From the NCBI GenBank assembly GCA_034189865.1, contig JAXHTV010000012.1, positions 1 through 64,000 of the forward strand: 64,000 nt of DNA, written 5' to 3'. Below, in pieces: positions 32,236 through 43,230 of the stretch. Under the pieces are notes generated by a model. That model ran no database searches. It was not told where the DNA came from and saw nothing but the letters and a program-made list of their open reading frames with translations. Source of the stretch: Pseudomonadota bacterium. Its GTDB lineage: Bacteria > Pseudomonadota > Gammaproteobacteria > UBA5335. The position numbers and the translations under genes were made by a program. Every line of letters starts with the position of its first letter. Within the stretch, counting starts at the first letter, position 1.

Positions 32236-33098
32236 CAGATCGAACCGGCGATGTCGTCAGCCGTTTCCATTTCGAACATTTTCCGGTGCGCGGTGAAGTG
32301 GTGCATCTCGATGCCACGTGGCAGGAAGCCCAACGGCGTGCGGATTATCCCGCGCCGGTTCGTGATCTGGTGGGCGAGGCCATGGCGGCCGGTGCGTTGC
32401 TGGCGGCGACACTGAAGTTCAAAGGCCGTCTGAGTCTGCAAATCGAGAGCGAAGGCGCGGTTCGCTTGCTGTTGGTGCAATGTGACCACCAGCTGCACTT
32501 GCGGGCAACCGCCCGATTCCAGGAACCGTTGAGCGATCCGCTGCTGATTGGTGGTCGGGTGATGATTACCATCGAGCCGGAAGGTCAGGGTGAGCGGTAC
32601 CAGGGGATCGTCGCGTTGGAAAGCGGCGGCGTTGCCGCAGCCTTGGAGCATTACTTCGAGCGTTCCGAGCAGCTCCCGACTCGCTTGCACCTCGCTGTCG
32701 ACGAGCACTGTGCATCGGGCATGCTGATTCAACGGCTTCCGGGTGAATCATCGGATGCTGACGCTTGGAATCGCTGTACCCACCTCGCGGCGTCGGTTCG
32801 TCCGGAAGAATTGCGCGAATTACCGGTGGAAACCTTGCTGCATCGTTTGTTTTTCGAAGAAGACGTGCGGGTATTCGAGCCGCGTCCCACGAGTTTTCGT
32901 TGCCGCTGCTCACGGGAGCGTGTGGCGGGCATGCTTCAATCTCTCGGCGAGGAAGAAGTGCGTGATATCGTCAAAGAACAGGGGCGGGTGTCGGTGACCT
33001 GCGAGTTTTGCGGAAAAGGTTACGAGTTCGATAAGGTCGACGTGGAATTGTTGTTTTCCTCCGGTTTCGGGTCGCCCTCCAGCGATCGGCTGCATTAG
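32232..33098 (+). CDS. hslO: Redox-regulated chaperone Hsp33
   Basis: Holdase activated by oxidative unfolding of its zinc centre. 288 residues. The four C-terminal zinc cysteines are present as CRCS (CxC) and CEFC (CxxC), about 30 residues apart. GTG start within the gatB stop region (GTGA), so translation is probably coupled to gatB. Confidence 0.96.
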
Positions 33099-33236
33099 CG
33101 GCGCGCGAGGTTTTTTTGGCAATGGAAGCCTGATAATGTCGATTGACTGATGATCAAGCCTTCGTCCCCGTATTTGCGCGTTCGTTCAGCCAGCGCGCTA
33201 TTTTTCAACCAAGTGGCATATAAAGGTTGGTAGGCC

Positions 33237-33761
33237 ATGGAGCAGTTTCCGCGTCGTAGTTGGTTTTTGTTGGTGGCGCTTCTGATTGGTGGCACGGTCA
33301 GTATGACGGCCCAGGCGGAAGGGTACACCGCGTTGCAGTATCAAATCCGCTTCGGCGGGGAACGGCAGATAGAACACAATTTTCTTTTGCTTTCGAAATA
33401 CCGGGGCTGGGGGCTGGATGACCAATCCGCGCCGGCGGTGGCGCACATCTACAGCACCAATCCGGAGAATCCGCATCTGTTTAATCTCGGGCCTGTCGGA
33501 GCGACAGTGCGGGTGGTTCTGCCGGCCTTGGTCGCCGGCGCGGGAAGCATCGCGGTGTTGAGTGATTACGGTGATGACGATTCGGACGACGTTCAGCCTC
33601 CCACTTTGCCGACCCAGCCAAGCGGCAATGAGCAGCGTCGGGAACTATTGATTCGGGCGGCTCAAATCGGCTTGCTCGTCGGCGGCACGGTGGTGCAGAA
33701 CTTTATCGATAGCCAGACTGATCCGGATCCCGTTCCCGTAACAACGTTGACCATGCCGTAA
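33237..33761 (+). CDS. Exported protein of unknown function
   Basis: 174 residues, not recognised. A signal peptide is clear (PRRSWFLLVALLIGG, cleavage after TAQA). The mature part has a tyrosine-rich start, a hydrophobic helix around VVLPALVAGAGSIAVL, an acidic linker (DYGDDDSDD) and proline repeats (PPTLPTQP). A second hydrophobic stretch follows (AAQIGLLVGGTVVQNF). Two hydrophobic patches joined by an acidic/proline linker could mean membrane association. The start is supported only by the signal peptide. Its last 59 bases overlap the convergent PAP2 gene. Confidence 0.65.
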   Translation: MEQFPRRSWFLLVALLIGGTVSMTAQAEGYTALQYQIRFGGERQIEHNFLLLSKYRGWGLDDQSAPAVAHIYSTNPENPHLFNLGPVGATVRVVLPALVAGAGSIAVLSDYGDDDSDDVQPPTLPTQPSGNEQRRELLIRAAQIGLLVGGTVVQNFIDSQTDPDPVPVTTLTMP

Positions 33762-34503
33762 ATGGCCCCGTGTACACCGAGGACCACGGCTCGTCGTCTG
33801 AGCTGAAAAGCCATCCGCGTTGCCTAAAAGCCTCACGCCATAGCCAAGTCATCCATGCGCCGAGAAAACCGCCAACGAGTACATCGCTCAAAAAGTGAGC
33901 GGTCACGGCCACGCGGCTGAAAGCCGCGGCGATAAAAAGCGGGATCAACCATCGGCTCGCCCGCGGCGCGAGATAGATCAGGGCGGTTGCCAGTGCGATA
34001 GCCGTGGTCGCGTGGCCTGATGGGAATGACGCGAAATCATAACCAAGACGGAAAAAGTGAAAGCCGTAAGTGTCGCTTTCGAACAGCACGACGCAACGTG
34101 CGCGCCCAAACAGAATCTTGAGTATATTGACGGCAATTCCCGAGCTTGCGACACAGCTGAACACGAACGCGCACTGCAGAGCGACGCGCCGGGTATCGAA
34201 GGGGAGTCTCATCCGAATATCGGGTTGACGGCACACATAGGAAAAGATCAGCCAGCCCGCCAAACTCGGAACCAGTGAGTAACTCGAGTCGCCCAGGGCA
34301 TCGAGGCGGGCAAAAAACGACTTGAAGGGTGCCTCGGGCGATCGAAAGAAGCGGGCCAAGGGCTGGTCTGCCAGGAAAAAAGACGGAATTGACAGTACTG
34401 CGATGATGCAGAGCCCCGTCAACCAGGGGTGATCGCTGACCCAGTCGGTGACGAGCTGTCGATTAGGGCGATTGGCGAGCGTGGTTCGTTTCTGCGTTGT
34501 CAT
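33703..34503 (-). CDS. PAP2-family membrane phosphatase
   Basis: 266 residues, about five or six membrane helices. PAP2 motifs: C1 KILFGRARC (usual KX6RP, here RC in place of RP), C2 FPSGHA, C3 SRVAVTAHFLSDV with the catalytic histidine. Such enzymes remove phosphate from lipids such as undecaprenyl pyrophosphate, phosphatidylglycerophosphate or lipid A. Its start overlaps the upstream ArnT-like gene by 41 bases, so the two are co-translated. That suggests recycling of the glycosyltransferase's polyprenyl phosphate carrier, or dephosphorylation of the same lipid target. Confidence 0.84.
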   Translation of the reverse strand: MTTQKRTTLANRPNRQLVTDWVSDHPWLTGLCIIAVLSIPSFFLADQPLARFFRSPEAPFKSFFARLDALGDSSYSLVPSLAGWLIFSYVCRQPDIRMRLPFDTRRVALQCAFVFSCVASSGIAVNILKILFGRARCVVLFESDTYGFHFFRLGYDFASFPSGHATTAIALATALIYLAPRASRWLIPLFIAAAFSRVAVTAHFLSDVLVGGFLGAWMTWLWREAFRQRGWLFSSDDEPWSSVYTGPFTAWSTLLRERDPDQSGYR

Positions 34504-36217
34504 GACTCAATCCGCTGGCATGCACGTGGTTAGGCCGATCAAGCGCAAGGATGGCCAAGTCCATCCAGTCGCCGCCGTTGTAGTTGAAACCGCGAATCTC
34601 GTCCCACCATGTCGCGCCCAGTCCACGTTCTTTCAATAACTCCAAAAACTTTTGCGCGTCTTGGCGGGGAATCAGGGCCACTTTGGCGTTGCCGTTTCCC
34701 AGCAGCTTTGCGGCTGCTTCGGTGCTTGCGGCCAGTTGTGTCGATCGTCCCAACAGGAAGACCAGACTGGGTTCGTGATATCCCACCGCTGTCACACGGT
34801 CACTGGCCAGTTCGTGCGCTTGCAGGGATTCGGCGATTCGGGGACTGATCCAAAGCGGCGTGAGTCTCGGTAGTAGACCCAGGTAGAAACTCATCGCAAA
34901 CGCAATGGCCGTGACACTGGTCCATCGGAAGAGCCGTCGTCCGTCGGAGTCCTTCAGCGCGTAAACGATAGCGAGACTACCCAAAATGACCGTCGCAACG
35001 GTGAACAAAGAAGCCACCGGAATGCCGAAACCCAAATGCCATGGAATGGCGACGCATAGGGCAATCAAGGCGGAGCCGCCGAAAGCGCCGAATGCCCCGG
35101 CAAGCACGCGCGCTCCTGGGGCGGCTGCCTGCCACGTTCCTTTCGGGCTTGCCAAGGCGGCCGCTACCAGTAGGCTGGCGGCGGGAAAGACCGGCAGAAT
35201 ATAGTGCGGTAGTTTGGTGGCTACCAGTTCTAACATGAGCCATGTCGGTAACAGCCAAGCGATGCAAAAGCGCACAGCCGGATCATTTCGGGAACGCCAA
35301 ACCCACGGGGTCGCAACCAAGGCGAACAAGCTCGCGGGCCAGAAAGTCAGTGCAAAAGAGAGCAGATAGCTTCCCGGTGCTGCGCCATGAGATTCCTGGC
35401 CAGATGGAACTTTGGCCAACAGATCTCCCAACAGCGCATCGCGAACGAAGCGTCCTTCCGTGGCGATGGAAATGGCAATGATCCAGGGCAACACCAAGCC
35501 AGCGACAATCAGCAAGCCCCAGCCGGGGCGGAGTGATCTGAGCCAGCGTCGGTTGTCGTCGGTGATGGTCAGCCAGGCCACGGTGAGGCCGGAGATGGCA
35601 CAAATGATCGGGCCCTTGATCAGAATGCCCAAGCCTTGGGCAATCCAAAAAAGAACCGCCCAAAAGATTGGCGACGGTTTGTTTTTCGGGTCCAAATAGA
35701 GACGGGCAAGACAACCCTGGGCGAGTACGATCACGGCCAGCAGGACCGCGTCAGTCTTGGCTAATCGTGCTTCCACGCCCAGCAGCACCGAACTGGCCAA
35801 GAACAGCGCGGACAATGCGGCAACGGGTCGACTGAAAAGGCGTTGCCCCAGTTGATATGTGAGCAATACAGCCGCGATGGCACCGAGCAACGAAGGTATC
35901 CGGTAGGGCCAGATGGCTTGCTCGCCGGCGAAAGGCGCCAGGATCCGGGCAGACGCGGCCTGTAGCCAATAAACGCCCGCCGGCTTGCGATTTCGTTCAT
36001 CATCCTGAAAGCGAATCGTGACCCAATCGCCGCTTTGCCACATTTGTCGGCTTGCTTGAGCGAATCGCGACTCGTCCCGGTCAGTCGGTGGTAGCGATGT
36101 GAATCCCGGCAGGAAAAAGAGTAGGCAAAGTAAGACCAACCAACCCGCGACGCGGCGGGGCGGCCGGCGGTCGAGGTCGGTCGAAAGCGCCGGCACGTTC
36201 GTGGTATGCAGCAACAT
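34463..36217 (-). CDS. ArnT-like polyprenyl-phosphate glycosyltransferase (GT83 type)
   Basis: About 584 residues with twelve or so membrane segments. The first periplasmic loop reads PPTDRDESRFAQASRQM, then DDERNRKPAGVYWLQ, which matches the ArnT/PMT pattern with an acidic catalytic pair and a KPxxxYW substrate-loop motif. The family moves a sugar, for example aminoarabinose, from undecaprenyl phosphate to lipid A or another acceptor in the periplasm. No arnBCAD genes lie nearby, so the sugar is unknown. Start is uncertain (36217, or 36241). Paired with a PAP2 phosphatase. Confidence 0.85.
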   Translation of the reverse strand: MLLHTTNVPALSTDLDRRPPRRVAGWLVLLCLLFFLPGFTSLPPTDRDESRFAQASRQMWQSGDWVTIRFQDDERNRKPAGVYWLQAASARILAPFAGEQAIWPYRIPSLLGAIAAVLLTYQLGQRLFSRPVAALSALFLASSVLLGVEARLAKTDAVLLAVIVLAQGCLARLYLDPKNKPSPIFWAVLFWIAQGLGILIKGPIICAISGLTVAWLTITDDNRRWLRSLRPGWGLLIVAGLVLPWIIAISIATEGRFVRDALLGDLLAKVPSGQESHGAAPGSYLLSFALTFWPASLFALVATPWVWRSRNDPAVRFCIAWLLPTWLMLELVATKLPHYILPVFPAASLLVAAALASPKGTWQAAAPGARVLAGAFGAFGGSALIALCVAIPWHLGFGIPVASLFTVATVILGSLAIVYALKDSDGRRLFRWTSVTAIAFAMSFYLGLLPRLTPLWISPRIAESLQAHELASDRVTAVGYHEPSLVFLLGRSTQLAASTEAAAKLLGNGNAKVALIPRQDAQKFLELLKERGLGATWWDEIRGFNYNGGDWMDLAILALDRPNHVHASGLSHDNAETNHARQSP

Positions 36218-36368
36218 GGGCGTGCCGTGTTCCTGGTGCATTGGGAGATGTGGCCTGATGTGGCACGATAGCGGCTTGATGTGACGTCCCAATGACGGAT
36301 CTGCACCCCGTGGTGATTCGGACTGTCAACCGCTTGTCATGATGATCAGTCTTACTTTGAGGGCTGTG

Positions 36369-37904
36369 ATGTTGAGTTCAGTAGCGAGCCTTGGAAGTGA
36401 CCACACCGCTCCCCGCCAACCCATCAACCGGTGGCCGGCGGTGGCTTTTCTTTTCGTCAGCGCGGCGGTGACGGTTTGGCACGTCGCCTTCTTGTATCAG
36501 GGCTGGTTGAATCTGTTTTTCGACGAAGCCCAATACTGGTTTTGGTCGACCGAGCCGGCGTTCGGATATTTTTCCAAGCCGCCCATGGTGGCTTGGATCA
36601 TCTATCTCACGACCAGTTTGCTGGGCGACAGCGAATTTGCCATCAAGGTCGGTTCACCGTTGGTTCACTGCGCCACGTCGTGGTTGATCTTTGCCTTGAC
36701 CCGCGATTTGTATGGCCCAAAGGAGGCCTTCTGGGCCGGCCTGGGGTATCTCAGTTTGCCGGCGGTGGCTTTTTCCAGCGCCATTGTTTCCACCGACCCA
36801 CCCTTACTGTTGTTTTGGGCGGCCAGCTTAGTGTGTTTGCACCGGGCGCTCACGGGAGGGCAGTGGATCTGGTGGGTCGGCCTTGGTGTGGCGATCGGGT
36901 TGGGCATGCTGAGCAAATACGCCATGCTGTTTTTCCTGATGGGCTTGGTGGTACACGGGTTGTGGAGCGGTTCGCTGACCAAGCTGTTGCATCGGCGATT
37001 CGCGCTGTCCGTGCTCATCGCGGGTTTGATTTACCTTCCGAATGTGCTGTGGAACCTGGATCATGGGCTGGTCAGTTATGTTCATACGGGTGACAACGCC
37101 CGATTGGATCGGGCTGGCCTCCGGCCGGGTGAATTTCTGGCCTTTGTTGCCAGTCAGGCGCTGGTCTTCGGACCCGTGTTCTTCGGCGCATTGGTGGCCA
37201 TTTTGCTGCGATTATTTCGCAGCCGATCGGTTTCCGAGCGTACGGGTTTTTTGCTGAGTTTCTCCCTGCCCCCTCTGATCTTTTACAGCGTGTTGAGTCT
37301 GGTCTCAGGTGCGAATGCCAATTGGGCAGTGACGGCCTATGTCAGTGCTGTTCCGCTCGTGACTGCGACCTTGTATCGGCACCGAAAATGGTGGCTCTAT
37401 GGCGCGTTGGTGTTGCATGCGGCGCTGGCTGTCGCACTGCATGAAATTCCCAAGAGTCCCCAGCCGTTTGGGTTCGAGCTCTCCGCCCGCAGCGACCCGC
37501 TTCGCCGGATCCGCGGCTGGGATGAGATGGGCGCACAAGTCGTCGCGCTTTGGAAGCTTTATCCCGAGGCGAAGGTGCTGGTGACCGATCGTCCCTCCGC
37601 GGCCGAGTTTTTGTACTATGCTCGCCCCGCGCCGGTCGTGAAGTGGAACGCGGACGGCGATATCGATGACCACTTCGACCTGGTCAGAGGCTTGCGCGAT
37701 GAGGATACCGGGCGCTATTTGCTTGTCACCGACAAGTCACAGCCTACCGATATCCTGGCCAGGTTTGAGCGTATAATTTCGCTGGGTACGTTATCTGCGC
37801 CGCGCTGTTGCGGAGATTCGATGACCTACCACGCGTTTTTGCTCAGTGCATTTAGGGGTTACGGAACCGCTACGGACGAGCAACCCACAGGGAGGTCCCA
37901 CTGA
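36369..37904 (+). CDS. PMT/RgtA-like membrane glycosyltransferase
   Basis: About 511 residues, multi-spanning. The first loop LFFDEAQYWFWSTEPAFGYFSKPPMVAW carries the acidic DE pair and the KPPM motif of dolichyl/polyprenyl-phosphate-sugar transferases, in the style of the Rhizobium RgtA-D galacturonosyltransferases. The ATG at 36369 has GAGGG five bases upstream; 36339 is possible. Divergent from the ArnT-like gene and coupled to a second PAP2 gene by a one-base overlap. Sugar and acceptor are unknown. Confidence 0.82.
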   Translation: MLSSVASLGSDHTAPRQPINRWPAVAFLFVSAAVTVWHVAFLYQGWLNLFFDEAQYWFWSTEPAFGYFSKPPMVAWIIYLTTSLLGDSEFAIKVGSPLVHCATSWLIFALTRDLYGPKEAFWAGLGYLSLPAVAFSSAIVSTDPPLLLFWAASLVCLHRALTGGQWIWWVGLGVAIGLGMLSKYAMLFFLMGLVVHGLWSGSLTKLLHRRFALSVLIAGLIYLPNVLWNLDHGLVSYVHTGDNARLDRAGLRPGEFLAFVASQALVFGPVFFGALVAILLRLFRSRSVSERTGFLLSFSLPPLIFYSVLSLVSGANANWAVTAYVSAVPLVTATLYRHRKWWLYGALVLHAALAVALHEIPKSPQPFGFELSARSDPLRRIRGWDEMGAQVVALWKLYPEAKVLVTDRPSAAEFLYYARPAPVVKWNADGDIDDHFDLVRGLRDEDTGRYLLVTDKSQPTDILARFERIISLGTLSAPRCCGDSMTYHAFLLSAFRGYGTATDEQPTGRSH

Positions 37905-38608
37905 TGCCGCAGCATGTCATATTCTGGGTGGCCGGGCTGACGGGTTTGATGGCGCTGGTGTTTTTGTTGTTTCCCGAGATCGATCTGTGGGTGGCTGGCT
38001 GGTTTTTCCTGGAGCCGGGGCGCTTCGTTTTGACCGACACGACAACGGCCTGGTGGTTGGGCGAAGCGGTGGATTTCATCGTCTTGGCAGTATTGCTCGG
38101 TTTGCTGTTCGGCTTGACCCGTTGCTGGCGGAGCGGTCATCAATCCTTTGGGATGAATCGCCGCCGGATCTTATACTTACTGCTGGTGATGCTGCTCGGC
38201 CCCGGTTTGATGGTCAATACCGTATTTAAGGACAACTGGGGACGTGCCAGACCATTGCACGTTTCGGAGTTTGGGGGAGATGCGCAGTTTACGCCTCCCG
38301 TCCTGGTTGCCGAGCAATGTGAACGCAATTGCTCCTTTGTCTCGGGCGACGCCTCTGTTGGGTTCTACTTTGTGGCTTTGGCATTCGTATTTCGTCGCAA
38401 GTGGTTGCGCTTGATGTTATTTGGCGGCGCGGCCGGCCTGTTTTTGGGATTCGAGCGAATGCTGCAAGGTGCGCACTTTTTGAGTGACGTCCTTTTCTCC
38501 GGGGTCGTGACCTTCGCGGTGGCATGGCTGCTTGCCCAGGTTTTCCTGCCGGAAGACCGTGTCGCATGGTGGCCATCAGTTCGTGGTCGGCCTGCATCAT
38601 CCACCTGA
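37904..38608 (+). CDS. PAP2-family membrane phosphatase (altered C2 motif)
   Basis: 234 residues with about six membrane helices. C1 is intact (KDNWGRARP) and so is C3 (ERMLQGAHFLSDV, with histidine and aspartate). C2 reads FVSGDAS where PSGH is usual, so the helper histidine is replaced by aspartate. The ATG lies in TGATG with the upstream glycosyltransferase stop, and GGGAGG sits in front of it. Probable partner of that transferase in lipid-carrier turnover or LPS dephosphorylation. Confidence 0.82.
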   Translation: MPQHVIFWVAGLTGLMALVFLLFPEIDLWVAGWFFLEPGRFVLTDTTTAWWLGEAVDFIVLAVLLGLLFGLTRCWRSGHQSFGMNRRRILYLLLVMLLGPGLMVNTVFKDNWGRARPLHVSEFGGDAQFTPPVLVAEQCERNCSFVSGDASVGFYFVALAFVFRRKWLRLMLFGGAAGLFLGFERMLQGAHFLSDVLFSGVVTFAVAWLLAQVFLPEDRVAWWPSVRGRPASST

Positions 38609-38756
38609 TTTTTTAATCGCGACAAACGCTTGCTGATCATTCTCTCCGCTTGCGCCATTCCATCCCGTGAGGCTTGGGTCTGCCTACATTCGTCCACCAG
38701 GATGTGATATTTGTATTTCCCTAACGCGTCGAGAGAACGCACGATGGGGGAGAGAT

Positions 38757-39647
38757 ATGGAGGGTTTGGAGCGGCCGACGGCCGAGATGGCCGAAACCTG
38801 GGAATATGGCGTAGAACCTGGGTTAACGCTCAGGGGCGGAATCATCGATCGTGGTCGCTCCACGCTGATTCATTTTTTGCCGGGAACGGCTTTTGCCTGC
38901 CGATTGTATTGGCCATTTCTTTCTCGCCTGGCCGAACACTACGATCTTTTCTGGCACGATCTCCACGGTCACGGCGAATCGGATGACGGTGGGCTGGAAT
39001 TCCGGGGTTGGCGCTTTACGGTCGATGCCGCCACCGCCATGATGGATCGTTTCGGTTTGCGCCATGGCGAACGCCGTATCGTGGGCATGGGCCACAGTTA
39101 CGGTGGCTGTATGACCTTGATTATGGCGGCAGAGCGGCCCGAGCTTTTCGGACAATTATTGTTGACCGATCCTTTTATGGTTCCGGAATCGCGCGAAGTA
39201 ACCTACCGCAGCATGATGCCGACCCTGGTGCAGCGTACCCGCCAGCGCAATCCGGTCTGGTCCGACGAAGCCGCTGTAAGAAGTTATCTTAAAGCGCGGC
39301 TCATGTTTCAAGATTGGCACGAAGAAGCGGTCGACGCGTTCATTCGGTACAACATGTCGCCCACGGACAGCGGGCAACTGCAACTCAAGTGCCCACCCGT
39401 CATTGAGGCCGGGGTATACGACGATGTCGTCGATGCGCTTTGGCCCAGTGTAGACGTTCTCCAAACGCCGACAGTGATACTCTCCGGGGATCGTACAGTG
39501 CCGTTTTTCCGAGAGGGTCACGATCTGGCGGCGCGAATCAATCCCCACGTCGGTCTGATCCGGGTCGCCGGCGGTCACAACTTCATGCAAGAACGACCGG
39601 AAATTATCGCCCGTCAAGCCCTGGACGTGCTCGGTGCGTCCTCGTAA
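38757..39647 (+). CDS. Alpha/beta hydrolase
   Basis: About 296 residues. FLPGTAFACRLYWPF forms the oxyanion loop, GHSYGGCM the serine nucleophile elbow, SGDRTVPFF the acid region and AGGHNFMQERPE the histidine. A serine hydrolase of the esterase/lipase or C-C hydrolase type; substrate unknown. GGGAGAG precedes the ATG; longer in-frame sequence to 38667 has no ribosome site. It stands alone, about 150 bases after the PAP2 gene. Confidence 0.83.
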   Translation: MEGLERPTAEMAETWEYGVEPGLTLRGGIIDRGRSTLIHFLPGTAFACRLYWPFLSRLAEHYDLFWHDLHGHGESDDGGLEFRGWRFTVDAATAMMDRFGLRHGERRIVGMGHSYGGCMTLIMAAERPELFGQLLLTDPFMVPESREVTYRSMMPTLVQRTRQRNPVWSDEAAVRSYLKARLMFQDWHEEAVDAFIRYNMSPTDSGQLQLKCPPVIEAGVYDDVVDALWPSVDVLQTPTVILSGDRTVPFFREGHDLAARINPHVGLIRVAGGHNFMQERPEIIARQALDVLGASS

Positions 39648-39707
39648 CGAACAAGCCAGGGGCGAGCTGATTATGATTTCGGTCCAACGCCTCCCGGTCT
39701 TACCCCT

Positions 39708-39852: not shown

Positions 39853-40284
39853 ATGGGGCGCATCAAGCTCAGGGTTCTGTTGATGTTATCGCTGCTCGGT
39901 CTGGTTTTGCCGATCGTTGGCATGGCCGAGGTTCATAAGCACGAGGTGGATTACTGTGGTTTGTGTGGCAAGGAAGTTGCCAACGCCCATGTGAAGTTCG
40001 TCGTGACCTATCCCGGTGGAAAGCAGGAAACGTTAGGGTGTGCGGGTTGCGGTTTGAGTGTCATGAGCGTGCAGAAAGTCGAGGGCGGGCAAACCATGGA
40101 CTTCCTGCGGGGTGAAATGCTCGATGCCAAGGTGGCGTTCTATGTCGTCGGTTCCGACTTCGGTGCTTGCTGTGCGCCATCGTGGTTGTCTTTCTCCAGC
40201 CAGAAAGAAGCGGAGAAATTCGCCAAGGGCTTCGGCGGCGAGGTTCTTGATTTCGATGGTGCCATGGCGTGGCTGGCGAAATAG
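39853..40284 (+). CDS. NosL-like exported cysteine-rich protein
   Basis: 143 residues: signal peptide (LLMLSLLGLVLPIVGMA), then a domain with YCGLCGKEV, GCAGCG and FGACCAPSW. The paired cysteines, YVVGSDFG and the closing GGEVLDFDGAMAWL resemble NosL, the copper chaperone of nitrous oxide reductase, and related metallochaperones. Likely a periplasmic metal or heme-thiol protein. No nos operon is present in the window. AAGGAGGAG lies just before the ATG. An FNR box and a strong terminator frame it as a single-gene unit. Confidence 0.75.
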   Translation: MGRIKLRVLLMLSLLGLVLPIVGMAEVHKHEVDYCGLCGKEVANAHVKFVVTYPGGKQETLGCAGCGLSVMSVQKVEGGQTMDFLRGEMLDAKVAFYVVGSDFGACCAPSWLSFSSQKEAEKFAKGFGGEVLDFDGAMAWLAK

Positions 40285-42828: not shown

Positions 42829-43230
42829 CTATAGATTGCTATGGCTGATACTGATGGGGGTGAAACCCTGTAGTAGCGGCCCAAAAATCGGTCCGTATTC
42901 GGTGAAGCTCAGCCCGACACCAAGTATCAGCGTGGCCGGGGGCGAGATGATATTGGCGCTGGTGATGGCAACGCGGCGAGAGAACCGAGTCAGGCGCGGT
43001 AGCCGCTGCTCCACGATGCGTGCGGCTCCGCTGATCGGGATCGGGCCAAGCATGAGGTTTGCTTCTGTTAAGTCGTTGACTTCAATGGCAAATTGATCGG
43101 CCAGTGAGATCGAAATTGCCTGGCCATGCACCGCTCTCAGTTCACGGTCCGTTAGGGATTCAAGTTCCGCATGCGCCACCCACGGAATTAGAAACGCAAT
43201 CGCTAAAATTGCCGTGAAAGCACTTCTCAT
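42829..43230 (-). CDS. Exported protein with LTDxEL-V-GQ motif, function unknown
   Basis: 133 residues. Signal peptide (AFTAILAIAFLIPWVAHA), then ELESLTDRELRAVHGQ, a motif found right after the signal in a class of gammaproteobacterial exported proteins (DUF6160-like). The rest is hydrophobic/beta-rich (ISISLADQFAIEVND and TLILGVGLSFTEYG) and might form amyloid-like or filament subunits; that is inference. AAGGAG lies 9 bases before the ATG. Convergent with the nuclease gene. Confidence 0.68.
   Translation of the reverse strand: MRSAFTAILAIAFLIPWVAHAELESLTDRELRAVHGQAISISLADQFAIEVNDLTEANLMLGPIPISGAARIVEQRLPRLTRFSRRVAITSANIISPPATLILGVGLSFTEYGPIFGPLLQGFTPISISHSNL

What the first reader, a model, noticed from the sequence alone, without database searches (positions are those of the whole stretch)
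33703..38608. Twin divergent glycosyltransferase + PAP2 phosphatase modules
Two polyprenyl-phosphate-sugar transferases of different subtypes (ArnT-like, RgtA-like) are each translationally coupled to their own PAP2 phosphatase, and the two pairs diverge from about 36.3 kb. No nucleotide-sugar or undecaprenyl-sugar synthesis genes are nearby. This looks like a compact envelope-decoration system that strips a phosphate and adds a sugar, twice, or recycles two lipid carriers. I know of no described system with exactly this mirror arrangement.
Basis: inference. Interest (0 to 1): 0.62.

Follow-up and report, generated by a model that had tools for sequence, protein, structure and literature searches.

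The report
Paired lipid A phosphate-for-sugar swap genes
This bacterium carries, in one small back-to-back gene block, two membrane phosphatases each coupled to its own sugar-adding enzyme; the block is conserved in relatives and most likely replaces both phosphates of its outer-membrane lipid A with a sugar (probably galacturonic acid), a chemistry already known from rhizobia and Aquifex but here packed into one locus.

Summary
Window 33.7-38.6 kb encodes two divergent, overlapping gene pairs: ArnT/RgtF-type GT-C transferase + PAP2 (minus strand), and Rgt-type transferase + LpxF-like PAP2 (plus strand). It is not a chance arrangement. The same mirror block, with overlaps and an 87-97 base divergent gap, occurs in another genus of the family at 40-47% identity. 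Elsewhere in the class the four functions recur together in three further families, as an operon or a mirror, and once with two PAP2 domains fused. Related clusters also carry a polyprenyl-phosphate-sugar synthase, and some a UDP-glucuronate-epimerase-like gene. The window's genome has these unlinked, plus a sugar dehydrogenase, lacks ArnA, and has no other PAP2 gene.

Best reading: a lipid A module in which LpxF-like PAPb + Rgt replace the 4'-phosphate and LpxE-like PAPa + ArnT/RgtF-like replace the 1-phosphate, probably with galacturonic acid. The phosphatase/transferase logic is known (LpxE-RgtF, LpxF-RgtD); the one-locus double cassette is, as far as I could find, undescribed. PAPb as an LpxF relative is well supported; PAPa as LpxE, the positions and the sugar are inferred. 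New variant of a known kind; interest 0.45.

The parts
33703..34503 (-). PAPa: PAP2 membrane phosphatase, LpxE-like (assignment inferred)
   Evidence: Pfam PAP2 E 1e-19; canonical K..R.R/PSGH/SR..H..D invariant; model closest to YodM Z 17.9 and Aquifex LpxE Z 16.5; grouping with Francisella-like UppP or E. coli YbjG rejected (p 0.017, 0.027), with Francisella-like LpxE not rejected (p 0.12)
34463..36241 (-). ArnT/RgtF-like GT-C polyprenyl-phosphate-sugar transferase (listed ORF extends to 36292; ATG 36241 preferred)
   Evidence: PMT_2/PMT, ArnT model 83 bits of 567 needed, profile match to ArnT structure 5ezm E 6e-21; clade with Azospirillum GT39 98/94 and with the other genus 98/96
36242..36338 (.). 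divergent intergenic region, presumed to hold both promoters
   Evidence: 97 bases; 87-93 bases in relatives; no sigma-70-like site found in it
36339..37904 (+). Rgt-type GT-C transferase (RgtD-like role inferred)
   Evidence: PMT_2 E 4e-30; one clade 100/100 with the Rgt proteins beside LpxF-like genes in other families
37904..38608 (+). PAPb: LpxF-like PAP2 phosphatase, second motif SGD, CxxNC motif
   Evidence: LpxF model E 5e-39 over residues 15-213, 134 bits, below the 400-bit cut-off; one clade 100/100 with Francisella-type LpxF; near-invariant CxxNC, SG[DH]

Best explanation
The block is a two-armed lipid A remodelling module working on the periplasmic face of the inner membrane. PAPb, an LpxF-type phosphatase, removes the 4'-phosphate of lipid A, and the coupled Rgt-type transferase puts a sugar on the freed hydroxyl. 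PAPa, an LpxE-type phosphatase, removes the 1-phosphate, and the coupled ArnT/RgtF-like transferase puts a sugar there. Both transferases would use a polyprenyl-phosphate-linked sugar, most likely galacturonic acid, made by unlinked genes: an NDP-sugar dehydrogenase, a UDP-glucuronate-epimerase-like enzyme and an ArnC/RgtE-like GT2. The product would be a lipid A without phosphate whose charge is carried by uronic acids. Shown by sequence: gene families, overlap of the genes, conserved mirror, recurrence of the quartet, presence of donor-gene candidates, absence of ArnA. Inferred: lipid A as substrate, 1 versus 4' assignment, and the sugar.
For: PAPb is a full-length LpxF relative in one strongly supported clade with proteins that pass NCBI's LpxF cut-off (414 and 424 bits) and shares their GD motif. 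The mirror quartet is conserved across two genera with overlapping genes in each pair. The four functions co-occur in other families: ArnT-PAPa-Rgt-PAPb operons (L067 with GT2 in front, L068), a mirror with GT2 and an LPG_synthase_TM gene (L076, L077), and Rgt + ArnT + a 508-residue LpxF-like/second-PAP2 fusion (L073). Rgt directly precedes the LpxF-like gene also in L080, L082 and L030. ArnT-PAPa occurs with GT2, LAB_N and a sugar epimerase in L107 and with GT2 and LAB_N in L109; L108 has PAPa-GT2-LAB_N-epimerase-Rgt. The genome has an epimerase 56% identical to the L108 one, an NDP-sugar dehydrogenase at 451 bits, one GT2 at 295 bits, no ArnA, and exactly two PAP2 genes, both here. Published pathway: lpxE-rgtF, with rgtE, for alpha-GalA at C-1, and LpxF + RgtD for GalA at 4'; A. 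lipoferum, whose relative of the ArnT-like protein sits in a GT2-LAB_N-GT39 cluster, is among the bacteria reported with GalA at C-1 (PMC7663294, PMC7795004, PMC5644692).
Against: No lipid A structure is known to me for this organism, which is unnamed here. PAPb is far below NCBI's LpxF cut-off. PAPa matches undecaprenyl-diphosphatase models (weakly) and not the LpxE model, and LpxE enzymes also act on C55-PP (PMC6581854), so a carrier-recycling role is not excluded. In L067/L073/L077 the second PAP2 and the ArnT-like protein belong to other clades, so these quartets are not strict orthologues. RgtD, RgtF and rhizobial LpxE/LpxF sequences could not be compared directly. No donor gene is in the block, and the GT2 lies next to a third GT-C transferase, which may be its main partner. 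The epimerase's substrate is not tested.
Confidence: 0.55

Rival explanations
1. Same two-armed architecture, but the sugar is not galacturonic acid (for example mannose or a hexosamine), or the two arms add different sugars.
For: GT-C transferases of this group use many sugars; published neutral lipid A with mannose replacing phosphate is cited in PMC7795004. The two transferases are only about 26% identical, and the GT2 may belong to a third transferase.
Against: An epimerase-like gene is clustered with PAPa-GT2-LAB_N in L107 and L108, and the window's genome keeps a 56% identical homologue and a sugar dehydrogenase. ArnA is absent.
Confidence: 0.25
2. Only the LpxF-like pair acts on lipid A; PAPa is mainly a C55-PP (or similar) phosphatase recycling the carrier, and the ArnT-like enzyme decorates core sugar or a remaining phosphate.
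For: PAPa hits undecaprenyl-diphosphatase models, though weakly; the PAP2 paired with ArnT in L067/L073/L077 lies on the YbjG side of the tree; LpxE enzymes are also C55-PP phosphatases (PMC6581854).
Against: The genome has a separate UppP/BacA-like gene (by eye). Transferases of this kind should release C55-P, not C55-PP. A clade of PAPa with Francisella-like UppP or YbjG is rejected, with Francisella-like LpxE it is not.
Confidence: 0.15
3. The four genes are neighbours by passive synteny, without joint function.
For: Flanking housekeeping genes (gatB, hsp33, a nosL-like gene) are syntenic too in the other genus.
Against: The quartet recurs in other families in different order and context, and once with two PAP2 domains fused; the genes of each pair overlap in every complete relative.
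Confidence: 0.05

Closest known systems
LpxE-RgtF-RgtE cluster of Mesorhizobium loti (also Oligotropha, Phyllobacterium in part)
   Same: PAP2 phosphatase beside a GT-C transferase; similar protein sizes (M. loti RgtF 549 aa + LpxE 271 aa; here 592-609 aa + 266 aa, transferase 546 aa in relatives); rgtE-like GT2 clustered in some relatives.
   Different: Here no rgtE in the block; a second pair is added in mirror; sequence identity to M. loti proteins not measured.
LpxF + RgtD of Rhizobium leguminosarum
   Same: Phosphatase plus GT-C transferase for the 4' end; similar sizes (257 and 473 aa versus 234 and 521 aa).
   Different: In R. leguminosarum the two genes are far apart by locus number (RL1570, RL0684); here overlapping and co-directional.
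Francisella LpxE / LpxF
   Same: PAPb is in one clade with Francisella-type LpxF and shares its GD motif; PAPa shares a GYDFASxPSGH-like motif with the LpxE candidate.
   Different: Francisella genes are unlinked (FTN_0416, FTN_0286; PMC4688374); in the Francisella-like loci read here no GT-C transferase was found beside them.
ArnT (aminoarabinose transferase)
   Same: GT-C family and Asp-Glu/Lys/Asp motif residues; profile match to 5ezm.
   Different: Far below the ArnT cut-off, separate clade from E. coli ArnT, ArnA absent from the genome.

Membership tests
LpxF (lipid A 4'-phosphatase), for PAPb | Curated NCBIfam LpxF score of 400 bits | tested here: not met
   134 bits, though full length, E 5e-39; Francisella-type proteins reach 414-424. 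Filed as LpxF-like only.
LpxF (lipid A 4'-phosphatase), for PAPb | Clade with known LpxF, apart from other PAP2 | tested here: met
   100/100
LpxF (lipid A 4'-phosphatase), for PAPb | Removal of the 4'-phosphate | not testable with these tools
   needs enzyme assay
LpxE (lipid A 1-phosphatase), for PAPa | KX6RP / PSGH / SRX5HX3D motifs | tested here: met
   K129, R134/R136, PSGH 161-164, SR 196-197, H203, D207 invariant; the Pro of the first motif is Cys here; motif from PMC6581854. The motif is shared by the whole PAP2 family, not only LpxE.
LpxE (lipid A 1-phosphatase), for PAPa | Phylogenetic grouping with a known LpxE | tested here: inconclusive
   not rejected with the Francisella-like LpxE candidate, p 0.12; rejected with UppP and YbjG
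RgtF (1-position GalA transferase), for the ArnT-like protein | Orthology to characterised RgtF | tested here: inconclusive
   clade with Azospirillum lipoferum/ramasamyi proteins of a GT2-LAB_N-GT39 cluster; M. loti RgtF sequence not available
ArnT / aminoarabinose pathway | ArnA present in genome; ArnT score of 567 bits | tested here: not met
   83 bits; no ArnA over cut-off in a 99.4% complete genome
RgtD-type transferase, for the Rgt protein | Orthology to R. leguminosarum RgtD | not tested
   no RgtD sequence was to hand

The most novel reading that the evidence does not exclude
Several gammaproteobacterial lineages have assembled, by different routes (mirror, operon, PAP2-PAP2 fusion, swapped PAP2 subtypes), a one-locus cassette that replaces both lipid A phosphates by sugar, so that a phosphate-free lipid A is an unrecognised but recurrent trait of the class.
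Probability: 0.4. Interest if true: 0.6.

Novelty: new variant of a known kind. Interest (0 to 1): 0.45.

Why it matters
Lipid A phosphates are targets of polymyxins and are recognised by innate immunity; they are absent in a scattered set of bacteria where the genes were found one by one. A compact, coupled, conserved cassette would let one predict from sequence which bacteria make doubly substituted lipid A, and gives LpxF-like and transferase partners that can be tested together. Recurrent pairing, and in one case fusion of two phosphatases, suggests that the two ends are remodelled together.

Tried and rejected
A long open frame (1037 aa) over the ArnT gene in L024 looked like a fusion; it is only a spurious upstream extension. 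LAB_N was sought as a missing donor partner: no match in the window's genome, present in three other-genus genomes near further GT-C transferases or their GT2. Aminoarabinose as the sugar: rejected for this genome, no ArnA; ArnA over cut-off only in one incomplete relative (G005), possibly acquired or contaminating. PDB sequence search did not separate LpxE from acid phosphatases for either PAP2, and fold comparison only shows PAP2 folds with YodM and LpxE on top. Promoter scan found nothing above chance.

Full report
Observation. The four genes and their coordinates are confirmed. On the minus strand a GT-C transferase (34463-36292) overlaps the PAP2 gene 33703-34503 by 41 bases; on the plus strand a second GT-C transferase (36339-37904) overlaps the PAP2 gene 37904-38608 by one base. 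The pairs diverge. ATG 36241 is a better start for the first transferase than the listed TTG.

Not chance. In four genomes of another genus of the family the same genes lie in the same mirror order at 40-47% identity, between gatB-hsp33 on one side and a nosL-like gene on the other; in one of the four (L023) the contig ends inside the ArnT-like gene, so only three are complete. The genes overlap by 1-4 bases and the divergent gap is 87-93 bases in the three. Because the flanks are syntenic too, this alone could be passive. A search of 369 genomes of the class found LpxF-like genes in 30. Among the loci outside the family, the Rgt transferase directly precedes the LpxF-like gene on the same strand in six (L067, L068, L076, L077, L080, L082); counting L073, where the gene order differs, five families have both, and three of these families have an ArnT-like gene too. 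L067 and L068 are co-directional operons, L067 with a GT2 in front; L077 is a mirror with GT2 and an LPG_synthase_TM gene between the arms and L076 matches it as far as its contig goes; L073 carries an LpxF-like domain fused to a second PAP2 domain. Many other LpxF-like genes had no such neighbours within the stretches read, so pairing is common but not universal.

Identity. PAPb is a full-length LpxF relative and forms a 100/100 clade with proteins of Francisella-like genomes that pass NCBI's LpxF cut-off. The second motif SGD replaces SGH as in those LpxF; Aquifex LpxE also has Asp there and is active (PMC6581854). PAPa is a canonical PAP2. Grouping it with Francisella-like UppP or E. coli YbjG is rejected, with the LpxE candidate not rejected, and with the PAP2 of L107-L110 weakly favoured. 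The LpxE candidate was picked by its place between pilin genes and a folD-like gene (recognised by eye) and its position relative to lpxF, which agrees with the locus numbers in PMC4688374; it is itself an inference. Fold comparison puts YodM and LpxE first for both models, which shows fold, not substrate.

The ArnT-like protein falls with Azospirillum proteins encoded in a GT2 - LAB_N - GT39 cluster, next to L107 and L109, where ArnT and PAP2 are followed by GT2 and LAB_N, and in L107 by an epimerase. The genome's third such transferase and the ArnT of L067/L073/L076 are separate clades. The Rgt protein is in a 100/100 clade with those beside LpxF-like genes.

Donor. None is in the block. The genome has one ArnC/RgtE-like GT2 on contig 1 beside a third GT-C transferase, an epimerase 56% identical to the L108 one, downstream of what looks like lipA, and an NDP-sugar dehydrogenase. 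The epimerase's best solved relative, 5u4q, is labelled dTDP-glucose 4,6-dehydratase in the PDB; that it and 6zl6 are UDP-glucuronate 4-epimerases is my own knowledge. ArnA is absent. Only two PAP2 genes were found in the genome, both here.

Mechanism. Published work assigns LpxE + RgtF to alpha-GalA at C-1 and LpxF + RgtD to GalA at 4', with RgtE making the donor; both ends carry GalA in Aquifex, Caulobacter and Oligotropha (PMC7663294, PMC5644692, PMC7795004). The block fits a two-armed version: dephosphorylate, then glycosylate, at each end. Carrier recycling is a weaker reading because such transferases should release the monophosphate carrier and a UppP/BacA-like gene is present (recognised by eye). 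I estimate: pairs are functional units 0.9, lipid A is the substrate 0.75, PAPb acts at 4' 0.7, PAPa at 1 0.55, sugar is GalA 0.6. These are judgements, not computed.

Novelty. The chemistry and gene families are known. The single-locus double cassette, its mirror form and the PAP2-PAP2 fusion did not turn up in the open-access papers I searched; most subscription papers were not searchable. New variant of a known kind.

Noticed in passing
L073 4823-6349: A 508-residue protein with two PAP2 domains, LpxF-like at the N end and undecaprenyl-diphosphatase-like at the C end, next to ArnT-like and Rgt-like genes.
   Followed up: partly
L076, L077, L080 LpxF-like genes: These LpxF-like proteins are about 413-418 aa, with roughly 180 residues beyond the LpxF match in L077; the extension was not identified.
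   Followed up: no
L026 (G006:C129): An 899-residue open frame joins a GT2-like part, a GtrA-like membrane region (by eye) and an Rgt-like GT-C transferase.
   Followed up: no
G000:C1:34015-35843: The genome's only RgtE/ArnC-like GT2 sits beside a third GT-C transferase of a separate clade; its acceptor is unknown.
   Followed up: partly
G005:C152:4522-7430: Full ArnA and an ArnC-like GT2 on one contig of one relative only; the other three family genomes searched have no ArnA over cut-off. Possibly acquired or contamination.
   Followed up: no
window 39853-40284: A NosL-like gene follows the LpxF-like gene in all four relatives read (after an alpha/beta hydrolase gene in the window); its link, if any, is unknown.
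   Followed up: no
window 42829-43230 (-): Small secreted-looking protein of family DUF6160 with an LTDRELRAVHGQ motif; a similar motif (MQDAELSSVRGQ) is in L132 528-983.
   Followed up: no
L067 5131-5697: A TIR-domain protein lies directly beside the LpxF-like gene.
   Followed up: no
window 33000-39700: 16 terminator-like patterns against 8.5 +/- 3.0 expected, mostly inside genes; probably without meaning.
   Followed up: no
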